From: an uncultured Modestobacter sp.
GTDB taxonomy: Bacteria > Actinomycetota > Actinomycetes > Mycobacteriales > Geodermatophilaceae
Assembly: GCF_947486615.1 (NCBI RefSeq)
Contig: NZ_CANKUD010000002.1
Coordinates: forward strand, 1 to 64,000
DNA length: 64,000 nucleotides
Reading direction: 5' to 3'
Position 1 is the first letter of the stretch. Every line of letters begins with the position of its first letter. Positions 6,661-55,593 of the stretch are shown here, in pieces. A program made the position numbers and the translations under genes. A model generated the notes under the pieces. That model was given only the letters and a program-made list of their open reading frames with translations. It did not search any database and was not told the origin of the DNA.

Positions 6661-7623
6661 CTACTTGCGGGCGGTGATCTGCTCGGTGGCCGCCGGGACG
6701 ACGGTGTTCAGGTCACCGACGACGCCGAAGTCGGCCAGCTCGAAGATCGGCGCCTCGGGGTCCTTGTTGACCGCGACGATCGTCTTCGAGGTCTGCATGC
6801 CGGCCCGGTGCTGGATAGCGCCGGAGATGCCGACGGCGATGTAGAGCTGCGGCGACACCGTCTTGCCGGTCTGCCCGACCTGGAAGGAGTGCGGGTAGAA
6901 GCCGGAGTCGACCGCGGCCCGGGAGGCGCCGACGGCGGCCCCCAGGGAGTCGGCGAGGCCCTCGATCACGGAGAAGTTCTCCGCGCTGGCCACACCGCGA
7001 CCACCGGAGACGACGATCGAGGCCTCGGTCAGCTCGGGCCGGTTGGACTTCTGCTCCACCACCCGGTCGAGCACCCGGGTCTGCTTGGCGGCCTCGGAGA
7101 TCACGACCGGCACGGCCTCCTCGGCCCCGGCGGCCGGCGCCGGCTCCGGGGTGACCGAGTTGCCGCGCAGGGTGTAGATCGGGGTGCCGACGGTGACCTG
7201 CGAGTGCACGATCGTCGCCCCGGCGAACGCCACCTGGGTGGCGGTGCCGTCGGCGGCGATCTCGGTGACGTCGGTCAGGAAGCCGCTGCCGGTCTTGATC
7301 GCCAGCCGGCCGGCGACCTCCTTGCCCTCCGGGGAGGACGGGATGACCACGGCGGCGGGCTGCTTGTCGGTGACCAGCTGGGCCAGCACCTCGGCCTTGG
7401 GCGCGACCAGGTAGGCGTCGACGTCCTCGGACTCGGCGACGTAGACCTTCGCCGCGCCGTACTCGGCCAGCACGTCCTTGATGCCGGCGGCGGTGCCGGG
7501 GGCACCGATGACGACGGCTGCGGGCTCACCGAGGGCACGGGCAGCGGTCAGCGCCTCCAGGGTGGTCTTGCGGGGCCCGCCGGCGGCGGGGTTGAGCTCG
7601 GCCAGGACCAGGACCTCTGCCAT
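6661..7623 (-). CDS. etfA: Electron transfer flavoprotein alpha subunit
   Basis: The 320-residue subunit has the N-terminal alpha/beta domain ([11 protein letters not shown]) and the C-terminal FAD-binding domain with [30 protein letters not shown] and GAIQHRAGM. It pairs with EtfB to carry electrons from acyl-CoA dehydrogenases to the respiratory chain. It follows etfB after 32 nt with a GAGGAG Shine-Dalgarno 7-9 nt before the ATG, so the two are one transcript. The same gene pair sits beside iscS and mnmA in M. tuberculosis (fixB/fixA). Confidence 0.96.
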
Positions 7624-7655: not shown

Positions 7656-8435
7656 TCAGACGATCTTCTGGGCGGCCAGGTAGCCCACCAGCTTCTCGGC
7701 GCCGTCGCCCTCGTCGGCCACCTTCACGCCCTCGCCCTTGGGCGGGCGGCCGGCGAACTCCAGGACCTTGCTGGTCGCGGTGGCCAGGCCGACGGTGCCC
7801 GGGTCGATGCCCAGGTCGGCCAGCGTCTTGGTCTCCACCGGCTTCTTCTTGGCGGCCATGATCCCCTTGAAGGAGGGGTAGCGCGGCTCGTTGATCGTGT
7901 CCCAGGTGGAGACGATCGCCGGCAGCGGCGCCTCGACCTCCCAGTACCCGCCGTCGGTCTGCCGCTCGATCTTTGCCATCGAGCCCTCGATGGTGAGCTT
8001 GCGGGCACCGGACAGCTGCGGGATGCCCAGCCGCTCGGACAGCAGCGCCGGCATCACCGACACCTGCCCGTCGGTGGACTCGGCGCCGCAGAGCACCAGG
8101 TCGTAGTCCAGCTGCGACAGTGCAGCGGCGATGATCGCGCTGGTCTGCGGCGCGCAGGCGCCGTGGATCGCCGGGTCGGAGACGTGCACGGCCTTGTCCG
8201 CGCCCATCGACAGGGCCTTGCGGATGGCGTCGGTGGCGGTGTCGGGGCCGACGGTCAGCACGGTGACCTCACCGCCCTGCGCCTCCTTGACCGTCAGCGC
8301 CTCCTCGATGGCGTACTCGTCCATCTCGTTGATCACGTTGTCGGCGGTGGCCCGCGCGACGGTGTTGTCCGACGGGTCCAGCTTCCGCTCGCTGCCGGAG
8401 TCGGGGACCTGCTTGACCAGAACGACGATGTTCAT
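7656..8435 (-). CDS. etfB: Electron transfer flavoprotein beta subunit
   Basis: The 259-residue EtfB begins MNIVVLVKQVPD and has NEMDEYAIEEAL, GADKAVHV and the CGAESTDGQ nucleotide-binding loop, all characteristic of the AMP-binding beta subunit. The ATG at 8435 was chosen because the conserved NIVVLVKQVPD strand starts there and GGAGG lies upstream. It leads the etfBA operon. A TACYNNNNRGTA inverted repeat at 8503-8514 overlaps the probable -10 box and is shared with ccr, the 3-hydroxybutyryl-CoA dehydrogenase gene and ecm, which ties this flavoprotein to short-chain acyl-CoA metabolism here. Confidence 0.96.
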   Translation of the reverse strand: MNIVVLVKQVPDSGSERKLDPSDNTVARATADNVINEMDEYAIEEALTVKEAQGGEVTVLTVGPDTATDAIRKALSMGADKAVHVSDPAIHGACAPQTSAIIAAALSQLDYDLVLCGAESTDGQVSVMPALLSERLGIPQLSGARKLTIEGSMAKIERQTDGGYWEVEAPLPAIVSTWDTINEPRYPSFKGIMAAKKKPVETKTLADLGIDPGTVGLATATSKVLEFAGRPPKGEGVKVADEGDGAEKLVGYLAAQKIV

Positions 8436-8498: not shown

Positions 8499-8514
8499 AG
8501 GCTACTTGCGGGTA
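8499..8514 (-). promoter_or_regulatory. etfBA promoter with shared TACYNNNNRGTA operator
   Basis: Read on the coding strand, TACCCGCAAGTAGCCTC contains the inverted repeat TACC-N4-AGTA (8514-8503). Its last TA opens a TAGCCT -10 hexamer (8504-8499). The ccr promoter has the same 17-mer with a single change. Operator role is inferred from this recurrence. Confidence 0.6.
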
Positions 8515-36581: not shown

Positions 36582-36597
36582 TACCCGCCAGTAGCCT
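36582..36597 (+). promoter_or_regulatory. ccr promoter with shared TACYNNNNRGTA operator
   Basis: TACCCGCCAGTA (36582-36593) is an inverted repeat of TACC/T and A/GGTA. Its last TA begins a TAGCCT -10 box (36592-36597), 49 nt before the ATG. The same layout occurs at etfBA and the 3-hydroxybutyryl-CoA dehydrogenase gene, and the same 12-mer precedes ecm. Confidence 0.65.
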
Positions 36598-36646: not shown

Positions 36647-37978
36647 ATGGACCAGATCAGGGACGCCATCCTCGCCGACGACCTCGACGCGATCGGAGGG
36701 CTCCCGACACCGGGGTCCTACCGCGCGGTGCTGGTCCGCAAGGACGAGCAGGAGGTGTTCGAGGGCCTGGAGACGAAGGACAAGGACCCCCGCCGCTCCC
36801 TGCACGTGGAGGAGGTGCCGACACCCGAGCTCGGCCCGGGCGAGGCGCTGGTGGCGGTGATGGCCTCCTCGGTCAACTACAACACCGTCTGGACGTCGAT
36901 CTTCGAGCCGGTGTCGACCTTCGGCTTCCTCGCCCGCTACGGCCGGCTCAACGACCTGACGAAGAAGCACGACCTGCCCTACCACGTGGTCGGCTCCGAC
37001 CTGGCCGGCGTCGTCGTCCGGGTCGGCCCCGGGGTGAACCGGTGGGCGCCAGGTGACGAGGTGGTCGCGCACTGCCTGTCGGTCGAGCTGGAGGACCCGG
37101 CCGGCCACGACGACACGATGATGGACCCGCAGCAGCGGATCTGGGGCTTCGAGACCAACTTCGGCGGCCTGGCCGAGCTGTCCCTGGTCAAGAGCAACCA
37201 GCTGATGCCCAAGCCGGCCCACCTCACCTGGGAGGAGGCCGCCTGCCCCGGGCTGGTCAACTCCACCGCCTACCGGCAGCTGGTCAGCCGCAACGGCGCG
37301 GCGATGAAGCAGGGCGACGTCGTGCTGATCTGGGGTGCCTCCGGTGGGCTGGGCTCCTACGCCACCCAGATGGCGCTGGGCGGCGGCGCGATCCCGGTGT
37401 GCGTGGTCGGCAGCCCGGAGAAGGCCGAGATCGTGCGCTCGATGGGCGCCGAGCTGGTGATCGACCGGTCGGCCGAGCAGTACCGGTTCTGGTCCGACGA
37501 GGAGACCCAGGACCCCGACGAGTGGAAGCGGCTGGGCGCCCGGATCCGCGAGCTGACCGGCGGGGACGACGCCGACATCGTCTTCGAGCACCCCGGCCGG
37601 GAGACCTTCGGCGCCAGCGTCTACGTCGCCCGCCGGGGCGGCACGATCGTCACCTGCGCCTCGACCAGCGGCTTCCTGCACTCCTACGACAACCGGTACC
37701 TCTGGATGAACCTCAAGCGGATCGTCGGCTCGCACTTCGCCAACTACCGCGAGGCCTGGGAGGCCAACCGGCTGATCCAGCGGGGGCTCATCCACCCGAC
37801 GCTGTCCAAGACCTACGCCATGGCGGACGTCGGCCAGGCCACCTACGACGTCCACCGCAACCTGCACCAGGGCAAGGTCGGGGTGCTCACCCTCGCCCCC
37901 GAGGAGGGCCTCGGCGTGCGGGACACCGCCCTGCGCGAGCAGCACCTCACCGCGATCAACCGGTTCCGGGACCAGTAG
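36647..37978 (+). CDS. ccr: Crotonyl-CoA carboxylase/reductase
   Basis: The 443-residue MDR-superfamily enzyme reductively carboxylates crotonyl-CoA to (2S)-ethylmalonyl-CoA with NADPH and CO2, the defining step of the ethylmalonyl-CoA pathway. The four CO2-pocket residues known from the Kitasatospora enzyme (N81, F170, E171, H365) are all present with a constant offset of two: N79 in SVNYNTVW, F168-E169 in IWGFETNFGG, H363 in GSHFANY. It is therefore a true carboxylase, not a simple enoyl reductase. NADPH site: WGASGGLGSYATQ. GGGAG lies 7 nt before the ATG. Ends in a strong terminator. Confidence 0.96.
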   Translation: MDQIRDAILADDLDAIGGLPTPGSYRAVLVRKDEQEVFEGLETKDKDPRRSLHVEEVPTPELGPGEALVAVMASSVNYNTVWTSIFEPVSTFGFLARYGRLNDLTKKHDLPYHVVGSDLAGVVVRVGPGVNRWAPGDEVVAHCLSVELEDPAGHDDTMMDPQQRIWGFETNFGGLAELSLVKSNQLMPKPAHLTWEEAACPGLVNSTAYRQLVSRNGAAMKQGDVVLIWGASGGLGSYATQMALGGGAIPVCVVGSPEKAEIVRSMGAELVIDRSAEQYRFWSDEETQDPDEWKRLGARIRELTGGDDADIVFEHPGRETFGASVYVARRGGTIVTCASTSGFLHSYDNRYLWMNLKRIVGSHFANYREAWEANRLIQRGLIHPTLSKTYAMADVGQATYDVHRNLHQGKVGVLTLAPEEGLGVRDTALREQHLTAINRFRDQ

Positions 37979-44376: not shown

Positions 44377-46161
44377 CTACCGGTCCGAGTGGTCGCGGAA
44401 ACCGCGGCCGGCCTTGCGGCCCAGGTAGCCGGCGGTGACCAGGTGCTCGAGCAGCGGCGCCGGGGCGAAGCCGGGCTCGCGGAACTCGGTGTACAGCTCG
44501 CGCTCGATGGCCAGGGCGACGTCCAGGCCGACGACGTCCAGCAGCTCGAAGGGGCCCATCGGGTAGCCGCACCCCACCTTCATGGCGGCGTCGATGTCGT
44601 CGGCGGTGGCGTAGTGCGCCTCCAGCATCCGGACCGCGTCGTTGAGGTAGGGGAACAGCAGCGCGTTGACGATGAACCCGGCCCGGTCGGTGCAGGAGAC
44701 GGCGTGCTTGCCCAGCTGCGCGCAGAGGGCCCGCGCGGTCGCCGCCACGTCGGGGTCGGTGGCGATCGTGGAGACCACCTCGACCAGCTTCATCGCCGCG
44801 GCCGGGTTGAAGAAGTGCAGGCCGACCACGTCGCCGGGGCGCTCGCTGGCCTTCGCGCACTCGATCACCGGCAGGCTGGAGGTCGTCGTGGCCAGCACCG
44901 CGCCGGGCTTGACGATCTCGCCCAGTGCGGCGAACAGCGCCTGCTTGGTGGCCAGGTGCTCGACGACGGCCTCGATGACCAGGTCGGCGTCGGCGAGGTC
45001 GTTCAGCTGGGCGCTGCCGGTGACCCGGGCCAGGGCGGCGTCCCGGTCGGCCTGCTCCAGCCGGCCGCGCACGACCTGCTTGTCCAGCGCCCGGGTCAGC
45101 CCGGCCTGCACCGCCTCGACCTTGTCCGGCGTCCGGGCGACGAAGGTGACGTCGTAGCCGGCCGCAGCCACCACCTCGACGATCCCGGTGGCCATCGTCC
45201 CGGACCCCACGACCCCGATCCGGCGCAGCGGGCGGGCCTCGGCGGCGGCCGCGTCGTCGGCGGGCGGGGTCTGGGCGTCCGGCACGACCTCGGCGGAGTC
45301 GCGGCCGGCGTAGGTGTAGAAGCCGCGGCCGGTCTTCCGGCCGAGCAGGCCGGCGGTCATCATCTGCTTGATCACCGGGGACGGGGCGTGCAGCCGGTTG
45401 CGCGACTGCTGGTACATCGTCACGAGGATCTCGTAGGCGGTGTCGATGCCGATCAGGTCCATCAGCGCGAGCGGGCCCATCGGCAGGCCGCAGCCCAGCC
45501 GCATGGCGGCGTCGATGTCCTCCCGGCTGGCGTAGCGGTTCTCGAACATCTCGACGGCGTGGTTGAGGTAGCCGAACAGCAGCGCGTTGGCGATGAAGCC
45601 GGCCTTGTCGCCGATGGTGACGTCGATCTTCCCGAGCCGGGCGGCGAGCGCCTCGACGTCCTCGACCACCGAGGGCTCGGTGACGACGGTGCGCACCACC
45701 TCGACCAGCTTCATCACCGGTGCCGGGTTGAAGAAGTGCATCCCGATGACCTTGCCCGGGCGGCCGGTGGTCACCGACAGCTCGGTGACCGAGAGGCTGG
45801 AGGTGTTCGTCGCCAGGATCGTGTCCGGCGGGCAGATGCCGTCCAGCCGGGCGAACAGCTGGGCCTTGAGCTCCATCCGCTCCGGGATCGCCTCGACCAC
45901 CAGCTCGGCGACGGCGAGGTCCTCCATCACGGTGGTGAACCGGATCCGGGACAGGATCGCGTCGCGCGCCTCGGGCTCGAGCTTCCCGCGGGCGACGGCC
46001 TTGCCGGTGGACTGCTCGACGTGCGTGCGGCCGCGCGCCAGCGCCTCGTCGGTCACCTCGACCGCCGTCACCGACAGCCCGGCCCGGGCCAGCACCTCGG
46101 CGATGCCGGCGCCCATGGTGCCCAGCCCCACCACGCCGACCTCGGTCAGTTCTCTGGCCAC
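44377..46161 (-). CDS. 3-hydroxybutyryl-CoA dehydrogenase, tandem-fused double module
   Basis: The 594-residue protein contains two complete 3-hydroxyacyl-CoA dehydrogenase units. Module 1 (about 5-285) has GVVGLGTMGAGIAEVLA, NTSSLSVTEL, catalytic His in GMHFFNPAPVMKLVEVV and the helical domain ending LLGRKTGRGFYTY. Module 2 (about 315-594) repeats them as GVVGSGTMATGIVEVVA, TTSSLPVIE, GLHFFNPAAAMKLVEVV and YLGRKAGRGF. Streptomyces have similar 590-residue forms. It converts acetoacetyl-CoA to 3-hydroxybutyryl-CoA, linking thiolase to Ccr. GTG start with GGAGGGG about 7 nt upstream. Promoter carries the shared TACYNNNNRGTA site. Confidence 0.93.
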   Translation of the reverse strand: MARELTEVGVVGLGTMGAGIAEVLARAGLSVTAVEVTDEALARGRTHVEQSTGKAVARGKLEPEARDAILSRIRFTTVMEDLAVAELVVEAIPERMELKAQLFARLDGICPPDTILATNTSSLSVTELSVTTGRPGKVIGMHFFNPAPVMKLVEVVRTVVTEPSVVEDVEALAARLGKIDVTIGDKAGFIANALLFGYLNHAVEMFENRYASREDIDAAMRLGCGLPMGPLALMDLIGIDTAYEILVTMYQQSRNRLHAPSPVIKQMMTAGLLGRKTGRGFYTYAGRDSAEVVPDAQTPPADDAAAAEARPLRRIGVVGSGTMATGIVEVVAAAGYDVTFVARTPDKVEAVQAGLTRALDKQVVRGRLEQADRDAALARVTGSAQLNDLADADLVIEAVVEHLATKQALFAALGEIVKPGAVLATTTSSLPVIECAKASERPGDVVGLHFFNPAAAMKLVEVVSTIATDPDVAATARALCAQLGKHAVSCTDRAGFIVNALLFPYLNDAVRMLEAHYATADDIDAAMKVGCGYPMGPFELLDVVGLDVALAIERELYTEFREPGFAPAPLLEHLVTAGYLGRKAGRGFRDHSDR

Positions 46162-46220: not shown

Positions 46221-46232
46221 TACCCGCCGGTA
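46221..46232 (-). promoter_or_regulatory. Shared TACYNNNNRGTA operator upstream of 3-hydroxybutyryl-CoA dehydrogenase
   Basis: On the coding strand TACCGGCGGGTA is followed by GCTCC. The site is 59 nt before the GTG and directly precedes a TAGCTC hexamer in the same register as at ccr and etfBA. Inverted repeat with 4-nt spacer. Confidence 0.55.
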
Positions 46233-52513: not shown

Positions 52514-53539
52514 GTGGAGCCCGTTCGGTTCGGACTGGTGGGGTACGGCTTCGGCGGGCGGTGGTTCCACGCCCCGCTGCTGGCCGCCGCGGCGGAGTGC
52601 GACCTGGTGGCGGTGGTGACCTCCTCGACCGAGCGCCGCGAGCTGATCGGCCAGGAGCACCCCGGCGTGGCCGCGGTCGGCTCGCTGGCCGAGCTGGCCG
52701 CGGCCGGCGTCGAGGCGGTGGCCGTCTCCACCCCGGCCGGCACCCACTCCGCGCTCACCGACGAGGCGCTCGACCTCGGGCTGGCGGTGGTCTGCGACAA
52801 GCCGTTCGCCCTCGACGCCGCCGCCGCACGGTCCAGCGTCGAGCGGGCCGAGCGGCTCGGCCTGCCGCTGGCGCCCTACCAGAACCGCCGCTGGGACTCC
52901 GACTTCCGCACCGTCCGGGCGCTGGCCGAGGCCGGCACGCTCGGCACGATCACCCGGTTCGAGTCCCGGTTCGAGCGGTTCACCCCCGACCCCGGGCCGG
53001 CGCCCTCCGGCGGCGGCACGCTGCTGGACTTCGGCAGCCACCTGGTCGACCAGGCGCTGGTGCTGCTCGGCCCGGTCACCTCGGTGTACGCCGAGTGGCG
53101 GGTGCGGGAGAGCGGCCTGGACGACGACGTCTTCGTCGCCCTCACCCACGCCTCCGGCGCCCGCTCGCACCTGGCCGGCAGCTGGAGCGAGGGCGCCCCG
53201 GGCAACCGGTTCCGGGTCACCGGCACCGCCGGCAGCTACGTCGTCGGCGGCCCGATGGACGGCCAGGAGGACGCCCTGATCGCCGGGGAGACACCGGCGA
53301 CGCTGGGCGCGGACTGGGGCGCCGAGCCGGAGTCCCGCTGGGGCCGGGTGCGCCGCGGCGAGCACGAGGACCGGGTGCCCACGCTGCCCGGCGCCTGGGA
53401 CACCTTCTACCCCGCGTTCGCCGCCGCGGTGCGCGGCCAGGGCCTGGTGCCGGTCGACCCCCGGGACGCCGTCGCCTCGCTGACCGTGCTCGACGCCGCC
53501 CGCCGCAGCGCCACCGAGGGCGTCGTCGTCCGGCTCTAG
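52514..53539 (+). CDS. Gfo/Idh/MocA family oxidoreductase
   Basis: A 341-residue NAD(P)-dependent dehydrogenase with the nucleotide motif VGYGFGGRWFHAPLL, VSTPAGTHSAL, the catalytic lysine in VVCDKPFALD (usual EKP read as DKP) and the C-terminal beta-sheet domain (GTLLDFGSHLVDQAL). Likely acts on a sugar or inositol derivative. GGGGAG lies 7 nt before GTG 52514; GTGs at 52511 and 52499 are alternatives. Its stop overlaps the ecm stop region (53536-53539) on the opposite strand. Confidence 0.88.
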   Translation: MEPVRFGLVGYGFGGRWFHAPLLAAAAECDLVAVVTSSTERRELIGQEHPGVAAVGSLAELAAAGVEAVAVSTPAGTHSALTDEALDLGLAVVCDKPFALDAAAARSSVERAERLGLPLAPYQNRRWDSDFRTVRALAEAGTLGTITRFESRFERFTPDPGPAPSGGGTLLDFGSHLVDQALVLLGPVTSVYAEWRVRESGLDDDVFVALTHASGARSHLAGSWSEGAPGNRFRVTGTAGSYVVGGPMDGQEDALIAGETPATLGADWGAEPESRWGRVRRGEHEDRVPTLPGAWDTFYPAFAAAVRGQGLVPVDPRDAVASLTVLDAARRSATEGVVVRL

Positions 53540-55560
53540 CCCGGCAGGACGGCCGCCCGGCGGTCCGGGTCGAGGTGGTTGGCCGCGCGGACGACGGCCA
53601 CCACCTCGGCCATGATGTCGGTGATCCCGAAGTCCTTGGGGGTGAACACCCGGGCCACCCCCAGCTCGCGCAGCCGGCGGGCGTCGCCGTCGGGGACGAT
53701 CCCGCCGACCACCACCGGGACGTCGTCCAGCCCGGCCGCCCGCAGGCCGTCGAGCACCGCCGGGACGACCTGCAGGTGCGACCCGGAGAGCACCGACAGG
53801 CCGACGACGTGCACGTCCTCCTCGACCGCGGCGGAGACGATCTGCGCCGGGGTCAGCCGGATGCCCTGGTAGACGACCTCGAAGCCCGCGTCCCGGGCCC
53901 GGACGGCGATCTGCTCGGCACCGTTGCTGTGCCCGTCCAGGCCCGGCTTGCCGACCAGGAAGCGCAGCCGGCCCCCCAGCTCCTCCCCCGTCGTGCACAC
54001 CCGCTCGCGCACCTCGGCCAGCGTGGTGTCGCCCTCGCCGGCGCCCGCGGCACCGATCCCGGTCGGCGCCCGGTACTCACCGAACACCTCGCGCAGCACG
54101 CCGGCCCACTCCCCCGTGGTCACGCCGGCCCGGGCGCAGCGCAGGGTCGCCGGCATCAGGTTCCCGGTGCCTGCGGCCGCGGCGCGCAGCGCGGCCAGGG
54201 CCTCGGCCACCGGGCCGGGCTCCCGAGCGGCCCGCCACTGCCGCACCGCACGCTGGGCGGCCGCCTCCACCGCCGGGTCGACGGTCTGCACCGCCGTCTC
54301 CAGGTCGGCCAGCAGCGGGTTGGGCTCGGTCGTCTCGAACCGGTTGACCCCGACGACGACGTCGGCGCCGCTCTCCATCCGGCGGCGGCGCTCCGACAGC
54401 GAGGCGACCAGCTGGCCCTTCATGTAGCCCGACTCGACGGCGGCCACCGCCCCGCCCAGCTCCTGCACCCGCGCCATCTCGGCCCGGGCACCCTCGACCA
54501 GCTCGGCGACCTTGGTCTCCACGACCACCGACCCGGTGAACAGGTCGTCGTACTCCAGCAGGTCGGTCTCGAGGGCGAGAACCTGCTGCAGCCGCAGCGA
54601 CCACTGCTGGTCCCACGGCCGCGGCAGGCCCAGCGCCTCGTTCCAGGCGGGCAGCTGGACGGCGCGGGCCCGGGCGTCCCGGGAGAGGGTCACCCCGAGC
54701 ATCTCCAGCACGATCCGCTGCACGTTGTTCTCCGGCTGCGCCTCGGTGAGACCCAGCGAGTTGACCTGCACCCCGTACCGGAATCTCCGCTGCCCGGCGT
54801 CCTGCACCCCGTAGCGCTCCCGGGTCAGCTCGTCCCACAGCTGCCCGAAGGCGCGCATCTTGCACATCTCCTCGACGAACCGGACCCCGGCGTTGACGAA
54901 GAAGGAGATCCGGGCGACGACGTCCCCGAACCGCTCGGCCGGCACCTGGCCGGAGTCGCGGACCGAGTCGAGCACGGCGATCGCGGTGCTCATCGCGTAG
55001 GCGATCTCCTGCACCGGCGTCGCCCCGGCCTCCTGCAGGTGGTAGCTGCAGATGTTGACCGGGTTCCAGCGCGGCATCGCCGTCACCGTGTAGGCGACCA
55101 CGTCGGTGATCAGCCGCATGCTCTGCGCCGGCGGGAAGACGTACGTCCCCCGGGACAGGTACTCCTTGATGATGTCGTTCTGCGTCGTGCCGGCGAGCCG
55201 GGCGACGTCGTGCCCGTGCTCCTCGGCGACCGCCTGGTAGAGCGCCAGCAGCCACATCGCCGGGGCGTTGATCGTCATCGACGTGTTCATCTCGTCCAGC
55301 GGGATGCCGTCGAAGAGCGCCCGCATGTCACCCAGGTGGCTCACCGGGACGCCGACCTTGCCCACCTCCCCCACGGCCAGCTCGTGGTCGGGGTCGTAGC
55401 CGGTCTGGGTGGGCAGGTCGAAGGCCACCGACAGCCCGGTCTGCCCCTTGGCCAGGTTGCGGCGGTACAAGGCGTTGGACTCGGCGGGTGAGGAGTGGCC
55501 GGCGTAGGTGCGCATCACCCAGGGGCGGTCGCGGTCCTTCGGCGCTGAAGGAAACGGCAT
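53536..55560 (-). CDS. ecm: Ethylmalonyl-CoA mutase (MeaA)
   Basis: The 674-residue single-chain adenosylcobalamin mutase converts ethylmalonyl-CoA to methylsuccinyl-CoA. The catalytic barrel opens with RPWVMRTYAGHSS and VAFDLPTQTGYDPDH, which is the MeaA form and not the usual methylmalonyl-CoA mutase wording. Tyr19 and Arg137 (LSRGTY) keep a carboxylate-binding pair. The B12 domain has LDGHSNGAEQIA (DxHxxG, about residue 541) and LSVLSGSH. Ccr, the epimerase and MeaB are elsewhere in the window. TACACT 8 nt before the ATG indicates a leaderless mRNA, and the shared TACYNNNNRGTA site overlaps the promoter spacer. Confidence 0.94.
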   Translation of the reverse strand: MPFPSAPKDRDRPWVMRTYAGHSSPAESNALYRRNLAKGQTGLSVAFDLPTQTGYDPDHELAVGEVGKVGVPVSHLGDMRALFDGIPLDEMNTSMTINAPAMWLLALYQAVAEEHGHDVARLAGTTQNDIIKEYLSRGTYVFPPAQSMRLITDVVAYTVTAMPRWNPVNICSYHLQEAGATPVQEIAYAMSTAIAVLDSVRDSGQVPAERFGDVVARISFFVNAGVRFVEEMCKMRAFGQLWDELTRERYGVQDAGQRRFRYGVQVNSLGLTEAQPENNVQRIVLEMLGVTLSRDARARAVQLPAWNEALGLPRPWDQQWSLRLQQVLALETDLLEYDDLFTGSVVVETKVAELVEGARAEMARVQELGGAVAAVESGYMKGQLVASLSERRRRMESGADVVVGVNRFETTEPNPLLADLETAVQTVDPAVEAAAQRAVRQWRAAREPGPVAEALAALRAAAAGTGNLMPATLRCARAGVTTGEWAGVLREVFGEYRAPTGIGAAGAGEGDTTLAEVRERVCTTGEELGGRLRFLVGKPGLDGHSNGAEQIAVRARDAGFEVVYQGIRLTPAQIVSAAVEEDVHVVGLSVLSGSHLQVVPAVLDGLRAAGLDDVPVVVGGIVPDGDARRLRELGVARVFTPKDFGITDIMAEVVAVVRAANHLDPDRRAAVLPG

Positions 55561-55568
55561 GCCCGCGG

Positions 55569-55593
55569 AGTGTAGGGCGGTTACCCGCCAGTA
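55569..55593 (-). promoter_or_regulatory. ecm promoter with shared TACYNNNNRGTA operator
   Basis: On the coding strand TACTGGCGGGTA (55593-55582) is followed 7 nt later by the -10 box TACACT (55574-55569) and, 8 nt after that, the ATG. The site lies where the promoter spacer and -35 would be, a typical repressor position. Confidence 0.6.

What the first reader, a model, noticed from the sequence alone, without database searches (positions are those of the whole stretch)
36582..36597. Shared 12-bp operator defines an ethylmalonyl-CoA/EtfBA regulon
Seen: the inverted repeat TACYNNNNRGTA occurs before four genes of one metabolic theme: etfBA (8503-8514), ccr (36582-36593), the fused 3-hydroxybutyryl-CoA dehydrogenase (46221-46232) and ecm (55582-55593). 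On the coding strands the cores are TACCCGCAAGTA, TACCCGCCAGTA, TACCGGCGGGTA and TACTGGCGGGTA. At etfBA and ccr the motif's last TA is also the first TA of a TAGCCT -10 box, and the dehydrogenase site has the same register. I found no further site by reading the window. Inference: one regulator, probably of TetR or similar dimeric type and encoded elsewhere, controls crotonyl-CoA/ethylmalonyl-CoA flux together with its electron acceptor. It could respond to an acyl-CoA.
Basis: partly seen in the sequence, partly recalled or inferred. Interest (0 to 1): 0.8.

Follow-up and report, generated by a model that had tools for sequence, protein, structure and literature searches.

The report
FasR-type switch for fat burning
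The same short DNA landing site stands before genes that burn fatty acids in this bacterium and in many other actinobacteria, and it matches the site used by FasR, a protein that senses activated fatty acids, so it is probably one shared on/off switch for fat breakdown.

Summary
The four sites are exactly where stated and far beyond chance (4 found, 0.12 expected). The genome scan changes the reading. The bare 12-mer is at chance level genome-wide (22 versus 21 in a control). But a matrix trained on other genera puts seven sites before acyl-CoA genes clearly on top: etfBA, ccr and ecm here, plus EtfD, a thiolase, an acyl-CoA dehydrogenase and a CitE-like lyase elsewhere. So this is a general beta-oxidation/acyl-CoA operator, not an ethylmalonyl-CoA one. 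It recurs before orthologs: thiolase 27 of 27, etfD 26 of 28, ecm 9 of 9, ccr 18 of 22, etfB 31 of 38 and 60 of 95 class-wide. The likely regulator is the FasR-type TetR protein at G000:C2:171517: the best conserved TetR compared, often with the site at its own promoter. The DNA crystallised with M. tuberculosis FasR holds two near-copies that the matrix finds unaided (0 of 20000 shuffles). Against it: five genomes have the site but no detected FasR, and FasR presence does not significantly predict the site (p 0.16). Binding, effector and sign of regulation are inferred. A class-wide FasR catabolic regulon was not found in the papers searched.

The parts
8503..8514 (-). operator before etfBA, coding strand TACCCGCAAGTA
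8499..8504 (-). TAGCCT, possible -10 box sharing the operator's last TA
   Evidence: read; promoter role inferred
7656..8435 (-). etfB, electron transfer flavoprotein beta subunit
   Evidence: family hits below curated cut-offs
6661..7623 (-). etfA, electron transfer flavoprotein alpha subunit
   Evidence: family hits below curated cut-offs
36582..36593 (+). operator before ccr, TACCCGCCAGTA
36592..36597 (+). TAGCCT, possible -10 box sharing the operator's last TA
   Evidence: read; promoter role inferred
36647..37978 (+). ccr, crotonyl-CoA carboxylase/reductase
   Evidence: TIGR01751 above cut-off
46221..46232 (-). operator before hbd, coding strand TACCGGCGGGTA; moderate matrix score (12.4 in this orientation)
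44377..46161 (-). fused 3-hydroxybutyryl-CoA dehydrogenase (two copies of the domain)
55582..55593 (-). operator before ecm, coding strand TACTGGCGGGTA, 33 to 22 bp before the ATG
53536..55560 (-). ecm, methylmalonyl-CoA-mutase-family (ethylmalonyl-CoA mutase type)
   Evidence: ethylmalonyl-CoA specificity inferred from context

Best explanation
The 12-mer is the core of a 16-bp operator, majority consensus GYTACYSRYSRGTARC, bound by a dimer of a FasR-type TetR regulator (in this genome G000:C2:171517-172164, about 107 kb beyond the window on the same contig). The regulator sits on or beside the -10 region of genes for beta-oxidation and acyl-CoA use (EtfBA, EtfD, thiolase, acyl-CoA dehydrogenase) and of ethylmalonyl-CoA genes (ccr, hbd, ecm), and most probably represses them. 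When long-chain acyl-CoA fills its pocket it leaves the DNA and the genes switch on. Shown here: the sites, their conservation, the ortholog, and the match to FasR's crystallised DNA. Inferred: binding, effector, repression, and use of the overlapping hexamer as the -10.
For: Sites upstream of orthologs, with the reversed pattern found in 0 of each set: ccr 18 of 22, etfB 31 of 38, hbd 7 of 9, ecm 9 of 9, etfD 26 of 28, thiolase 27 of 27. Class-wide etfB 60 of 95 versus 3 of 95 reversed; 80 of 80 mycobacterial records kept, reversed 0. A matrix trained without fas promoters or this genus finds both ends of the 25-mer crystallised with M. tuberculosis FasR (0 of 20000 shuffles give both), and the paper reports FasR dimers bound consecutively to one fragment. 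The ortholog's best PDB hits are FasR (E 1e-56 and 2e-53). It is in 38 of 39 relatives and 93 of 108 class genomes by my reading; SKPVLYQHF of the recognition region is unchanged in 76 of 76. The site lies at fasR's own promoter in 23 of 65 loci, 12 of 42 outside this genus, reversed 0. In six single-contig 1.3-1.4 Mb genomes with 2 to 5 TetR_N genes, all six etfB promoters have the site and all six keep FasR. FasR and etfB tend to be kept or lost together (p 0.004).
Against: Five genomes have the etfB site without a detected FasR: G032, G090, G105, G106, G120; all are multi-contig drafts, but G090 and G105 are rated 100 and 99% complete. FasR presence and the etfB site are not significantly associated (56 of 85 versus 4 of 10, p 0.16). 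Several families keep FasR but show no etfB site, e.g. f32, f39 and f25. This genome's own fasR promoter has no exact site, nor has fasR in the small f40 genomes. Each sub-site of the FasR oligo has one mismatch to TACYNNNNRGTA. Variable positions of the two half-sites do not covary. M. tuberculosis FasR is known as an activator, not a repressor. No binding or expression data.
Confidence: 0.78

Rival explanations
1. The operator is real but is read by another TetR-type protein, not FasR.
For: Five genomes have the etfB site without a detected FasR; site and FasR presence are not significantly associated. A second TetR (L095, G000:C7) is conserved at 63-75% in several families.
Against: L095 has no reciprocal match in the six small f40 genomes, which all have the site; the other TetR shared there is only about 30% alike to this genome's nearest. 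The TetR beside an acyl-CoA dehydrogenase (L013) is missing from G001, G009 and G018, which have the ccr site. FasR's crystallised DNA is recognised by the matrix; the published BkaR and MadR motifs differ. Limit: 31 TetR proteins of this genome were compared, of 41 TetR_N matches.
Confidence: 0.13
2. A narrow ethylmalonyl-CoA/EtfBA regulon.
For: Four of 22 genomic sites lie in this window before genes of that theme.
Against: EtfD, thiolase, an acyl-CoA dehydrogenase and a CitE-like gene have comparable or higher matrix scores; etfB and thiolase sites persist in relatives with no ccr hit.
Confidence: 0.05
3. The regulator is an activator at these promoters, as reported for FasR at fas-acpS, or works in both senses by position.
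For: Mycobacterial FasR activates fas-acpS (passages). In mycobacteria another conserved TATGGT-like element lies upstream of the etfB site, so the overlapping TAACAT need not be the -10.
Against: In most class-wide etfB sites the 3' half continues into a TANNNT hexamer (T at position 16 in 39 of the 47 sites examined), a position usual for repression; acyl-CoA release from an activator would switch catabolism off when substrate is present (inference).
Confidence: 0.15
4. Chance palindromes: the 12-mer is no more common than its control genome-wide.
For: 22 versus 21; about half of the 22 lie in or near other genes.
Against: Ortholog footprints far above the reversed-pattern and wrong-spacing controls.
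Confidence: 0.01

Closest known systems
Mycobacterial FasR (Rv3208), long-chain acyl-CoA-responsive activator of fas-acpS (PMC7382501; passages and section 10 seen)
   Same: Orthologous TetR protein, same recognition-helix residues, same half-sites in its DNA
   Different: Known target is fatty-acid synthesis and it activates; here the sites stand before beta-oxidation and ethylmalonyl-CoA genes, and repression is inferred
E. coli FadR, represses fad genes and activates unsaturated fatty-acid synthesis (PMC3460868, abstract lines in the listing; GntR family and release by acyl-CoA are recalled)
   Same: Proposed logic: acyl-CoA lifts repression of beta-oxidation; FasR would also activate synthesis
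   Different: Unrelated protein family (TetR versus GntR) and operator
BkaR (Rv2506), TetR repressor of branched-chain keto-acid genes (PMC3920632; passages seen)
   Same: TetR, 16-bp palindrome, acyl-CoA-related genes
   Different: Operator GTTA(N)T(N4)A(N)TAAC lacks the TAC...GTA of these sites
MadR, TetR regulator of desA1/desA2 (PMC8872791; passages seen)
   Same: Regulator that answers to long-chain acyl-CoA
   Different: Consensus TCTGTGxxxxxxxGT, different targets

Membership tests
FasR-type TetR regulon | FasR ortholog encoded in the genome | tested here: met
   PDB hits 6o6p and 6o6n, E 1e-56 and 2e-53, which are the FasR entries; reciprocal best match in 13 of 15 TetR sets compared, some of them partial
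FasR-type TetR regulon | DNA site like the one FasR was crystallised with | tested here: met
   matrix from other genera finds both sub-sites of the 25-mer; each has one mismatch to the 12-mer
FasR-type TetR regulon | same DNA-reading residues | tested here: met
   SKPVLYQHF in 76 of 76 orthologs with E <= 1e-40, of 96 loci given, and in 6o6p
FasR-type TetR regulon | regulator present wherever the site is conserved | tested here: inconclusive
   four FasR-lacking class genomes and G032 keep the etfB site
FasR-type TetR regulon | binding released by long-chain acyl-CoA | not testable with these tools
   reported for M. tuberculosis FasR
FasR-type TetR regulon | activates fas-acpS through three inverted repeats | not tested
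   no fas promoter was examined in this genome
E. coli-type FadR | GntR-family protein | tested here: not met
   the candidate's closest solved structures are TetR-family and it was found by its TetR_N domain
BkaR regulon | operator GTTA(N)T(N4)A(N)TAAC | tested here: not met
   sites read YTAC...GTAR; published motif, compared by eye
MadR regulon | TCTGTGxxxxxxxGT consensus | tested here: not met
   sites compared by eye with the consensus

The most novel reading that the evidence does not exclude
FasR is the ancestral, class-wide acyl-CoA switch of the Actinomycetes for fatty-acid catabolism: one TetR protein controls the electron exit of the acyl-CoA dehydrogenases (EtfBA and the membrane oxidoreductase EtfD) together with thiolase and, where present, the ethylmalonyl-CoA pathway, often autoregulates, and works like E. 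coli FadR by non-homologous means. Its known role as fas activator in mycobacteria would be one branch of this regulon, and etfBA of the genus Mycobacterium would be a FasR target.
Probability: 0.6. Interest if true: 0.75.

Novelty: new variant of a known kind. Interest (0 to 1): 0.62.

Why it matters
Actinobacteria include major lipid degraders, polyketide producers and mycobacteria. A 2017 paper stated that regulatory signals and genes for the catabolism of stored lipids and fatty acids in these bacteria had not been described so far (PMC5539140, passage). A conserved operator and a named, structurally characterised regulator would make that directly testable. It would also tie ethylmalonyl-CoA supply (a polyketide extender and anaplerotic route; recalled) and the EtfBA/EtfD electron exit, required for beta-oxidation in M. 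tuberculosis (PMC8593149, abstract lines and passages), to one acyl-CoA sensor.

Tried and rejected
TetR beside an acyl-CoA dehydrogenase (L013, G000:C3:256298) as regulator: rejected, because G001, G009 and G018 lack it but have the ccr site. The loose pattern KTACYNGCNRGTAR with one mismatch gave 68/62 matches versus 58/67 in controls: uninformative; three stretches fetched around such matches (L257-L259) were not analysed. Reciprocal matching used unreoriented minus-strand loci; redone. The etfB upstream table had the same fault; redone. My first ecm start was in the wrong frame; corrected. I expected pairwise covariation of the half-sites (my notes say 'covarying'); one search found none. 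The matrix score is the better of two orientations: read only towards the named gene, hbd scores 12.4 and the C1 acyl-CoA dehydrogenase 10.8, below two other sites (14.6, 13.7). TetR comparison covered 31 proteins of this genome against 41 TetR_N matches, and only 5 each from G018, G028 and G038. Paper searches for motif strings found nothing except the FasR oligo itself. The 2013 FasR paper (PMC3752660) is not held, and the main text of the M. tuberculosis DNA-binding network paper does not name FasR (its supplements were not seen), so priority of the idea cannot be excluded.

Full report
What is there. The window (G000:C2:1-64000 of a 4.70 Mb, 36-contig genome) holds exactly four TACYNNNNRGTA sites, at 8503, 36582, 46221 and 55582. 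One hundred shuffles gave a mean of 0.12 and none reached four. They lie upstream of etfBA, ccr, a double-domain 3-hydroxybutyryl-CoA dehydrogenase and a methylmalonyl-CoA-mutase-family gene at 53536-55560.

Genome scan. The bare 12-mer occurs 22 times in the genome against 21 for the reversed pattern, so many copies are chance. By neighbourhood, 11 of the 22 stand before acyl-CoA-type genes: the window's four, an EtfD-like iron-sulphur oxidoreductase, a thiolase, acyl-CoA dehydrogenases at C1:486447 and C2:266878 (the latter site overlaps the start of the longest frame), a CitE-like lyase, an AMP-forming CoA ligase, and a TetR/acyl-CoA dehydrogenase pair. The other 11 do not, as far as I annotated them; the neighbours of five (L008, L014, L018, L020, L022) were not searched against families.

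Matrix. I trained a matrix on 101 distinct sites from genomes outside this genus (etfB, etfD, thiolase and ccr promoters) and scored the 22. Training sites were picked by the exact 12-mer, so its fixed positions are certain by construction; the flanks and the middle are not. Seven sites score 18.9 or more towards the named gene: thiolase, etfD, CitE-like, etfBA, ccr, the C2 acyl-CoA dehydrogenase and ecm. The best other site has 14.6 and is part of a different long palindrome beside another TetR gene; the next has 13.7. The C1 dehydrogenase (15.1) and hbd (15.0) come eighth and ninth only when the better of two orientations is taken; towards their genes they score 10.8 and 12.4. The CoA ligase (12.4) and the TetR pair (10.6) are no better than some unrelated sites. 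In the whole window only the four sites reach a core score of 9.

Footprints. Counts are of loci with usable upstream sequence, own genome included except for hbd and ecm; the reversed pattern was found in 0 of each of these sets of relatives. ccr: 18 of 22; a 23rd locus had 14 bp upstream and was set aside; misses L057, L061, L062, L071. etfB in relatives: 31 of 38; the seven misses are the second etfB copy of this genome, divergent etfB genes in G010, G013 and G020, and G024, G031 and G033. hbd: 7 of 9; etfD: 26 of 28, two of 30 loci had no upstream; thiolase: 27 of 27 (one wrong-spacing hit). ecm: 9 of 9.

Class-wide etfB: 54 of 88 genomes, in 22 of 36 families, plus 6 of the 7 genomes first left out, gives 60 of 95; the other three of the 98 etfB-bearing class genomes (G000, G029, G037) are counted in the relatives' set. 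Reversed pattern: 3 of 88 and none of the 7; five wrong spacings together gave one hit in the 88. One search kept the best 80 of 542 named records, nearly all Mycobacterium, Mycolicibacterium or Mycolicibacter (a few are unclassified actinobacterial MAGs): 80 of 80 have the site before etfB, reversed 0, wrong spacings 1. There parts of the flanks are conserved too, so this set is less independent than its size. Half-sites are conserved as columns, but their variable positions do not covary. Relatedness makes all these counts less independent than they look, and gene starts were taken from homology.

The regulator. The TetR gene at G000:C2:171517-172164 is the best conserved of 31 TetR proteins of this genome compared: a reciprocal match in 13 of 15 sets (in G038 its locus was not among the five fetched, and in G069 it is present but was not reciprocal). 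It is present in 38 of 39 relatives and, at 47% identity or more by my reading of the list, in 93 of 108 class genomes; eight more have only a paralog near 30%. Its closest solved structures are 6o6p and 6o6n, the M. tuberculosis FasR entries. The 25-mer used for the FasR-DNA crystal (PMC7382501, passages) reads as two adjacent near-copies of this operator, one mismatch each. The matrix scores exactly its two ends (9.2 and 11.4) and nothing between; 0 of 20000 shuffles give two such sub-sites and 28 give one as good as the better. The paper reports neighbouring dimers bound consecutively to one fragment, at limited resolution (section 10). SKPVLYQHF of the recognition region is invariant in 76 of 76 orthologs.

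fasR's own upstream region has an exact site in 23 of 65 loci, 12 of 42 outside this genus, reversed 0; this includes all three f25 genomes, which lack an etfB site. It is absent at fasR in this genome and in the small f40 genomes. In six single-contig genomes of 1.3-1.4 Mb with two to five TetR_N genes, all six etfB promoters have the site and all six keep FasR; the other TetR with reciprocal matches there (five of the six) is only 30-33% alike to its nearest counterpart here.

Against. G032, G090, G105, G106 and G120 have the etfB site but no detected FasR; all are multi-contig drafts, yet G090 and G105 are rated 100 and 99% complete. FasR presence does not significantly predict the site (56 of 85 versus 4 of 10, p 0.16), although FasR and etfB are kept or lost together more often than expected (p 0.004). 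Families f32 and f39 have FasR without an etfB site. Other regulators of these genes are known or possible: in M. tuberculosis etfD transcripts answer to iron through IdeR, etfBA not (PMC8593149, passage). Nothing here measures binding or expression.

How it probably works. FasR of mycobacteria leaves DNA when it binds acyl-CoA of C16 or longer (passages). In the class-wide etfB set the operator's 3' half runs into a TANNNT hexamer (T at position 16 in 39 of the 47 sites with enough flank, of 54), which suggests that a bound dimer blocks the promoter. Acyl-CoA would then lift repression of EtfBA, EtfD, thiolase and dehydrogenase genes and, in this genus, of ccr, hbd and ecm, which take the crotonyl-CoA branch. 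With FasR's reported activation of fatty-acid synthesis this would be the logic of E. coli FadR made with an unrelated protein. The sign of regulation is the weakest step, since mycobacterial FasR is an activator and mycobacterial etfB promoters have another conserved TATGGT-like element upstream.

Novelty. In what the paper searches showed me (listings, abstracts and the passages cited), mycobacterial FasR appears as activator of fas-acpS, and I saw no text linking it to etfBA, etfD or ethylmalonyl-CoA genes; other proteins also named FasR occur in other bacteria. The library is open-access only and lacks the 2013 FasR paper. I file this as a new variant of a known kind: a known regulator family and site, with a proposed broader, catabolic regulon.

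Noticed in passing
L241, G000:C20:17302-18078: A second etfB, 96% identical to the window's, on a 20 kb contig and without the operator; a TetR_N match ends about 1.2 kb upstream.
   Followed up: partly
L002, C1:610701: A different long palindrome (GATGACTTGCGCTAC...GTAGCGTAAGTCATC) between a short-chain dehydrogenase and a TetR gene; it contains the 12-mer by overlap and looks like another regulator's operator.
   Followed up: no
L010, C3:76733-76761: Two 12-mers 17 bp apart between an ABC-2 permease gene and a TetR gene; matrix scores -1.6 and 9.3, probably that TetR's own operator.
   Followed up: partly
L433 (G029, same genus as G086, whose EtfB is 97% identical to a Mycobacterium record), upstream of etfD: Two exact sites 25 bp apart before etfD.
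   Followed up: no
G010, G013, G020 (same genus): Genomes with no ccr or etfD hit and a divergent etfB without the site, but with FasR and a thiolase with the site: the pathway seems lost or replaced in this sub-lineage.
   Followed up: no
L505, L543, L560 and other mycobacterial etfB loci, about 20-28 bp before the operator: A conserved CTATGGTGT-like element upstream of the operator, possibly the true -10 or another factor's site.
   Followed up: no
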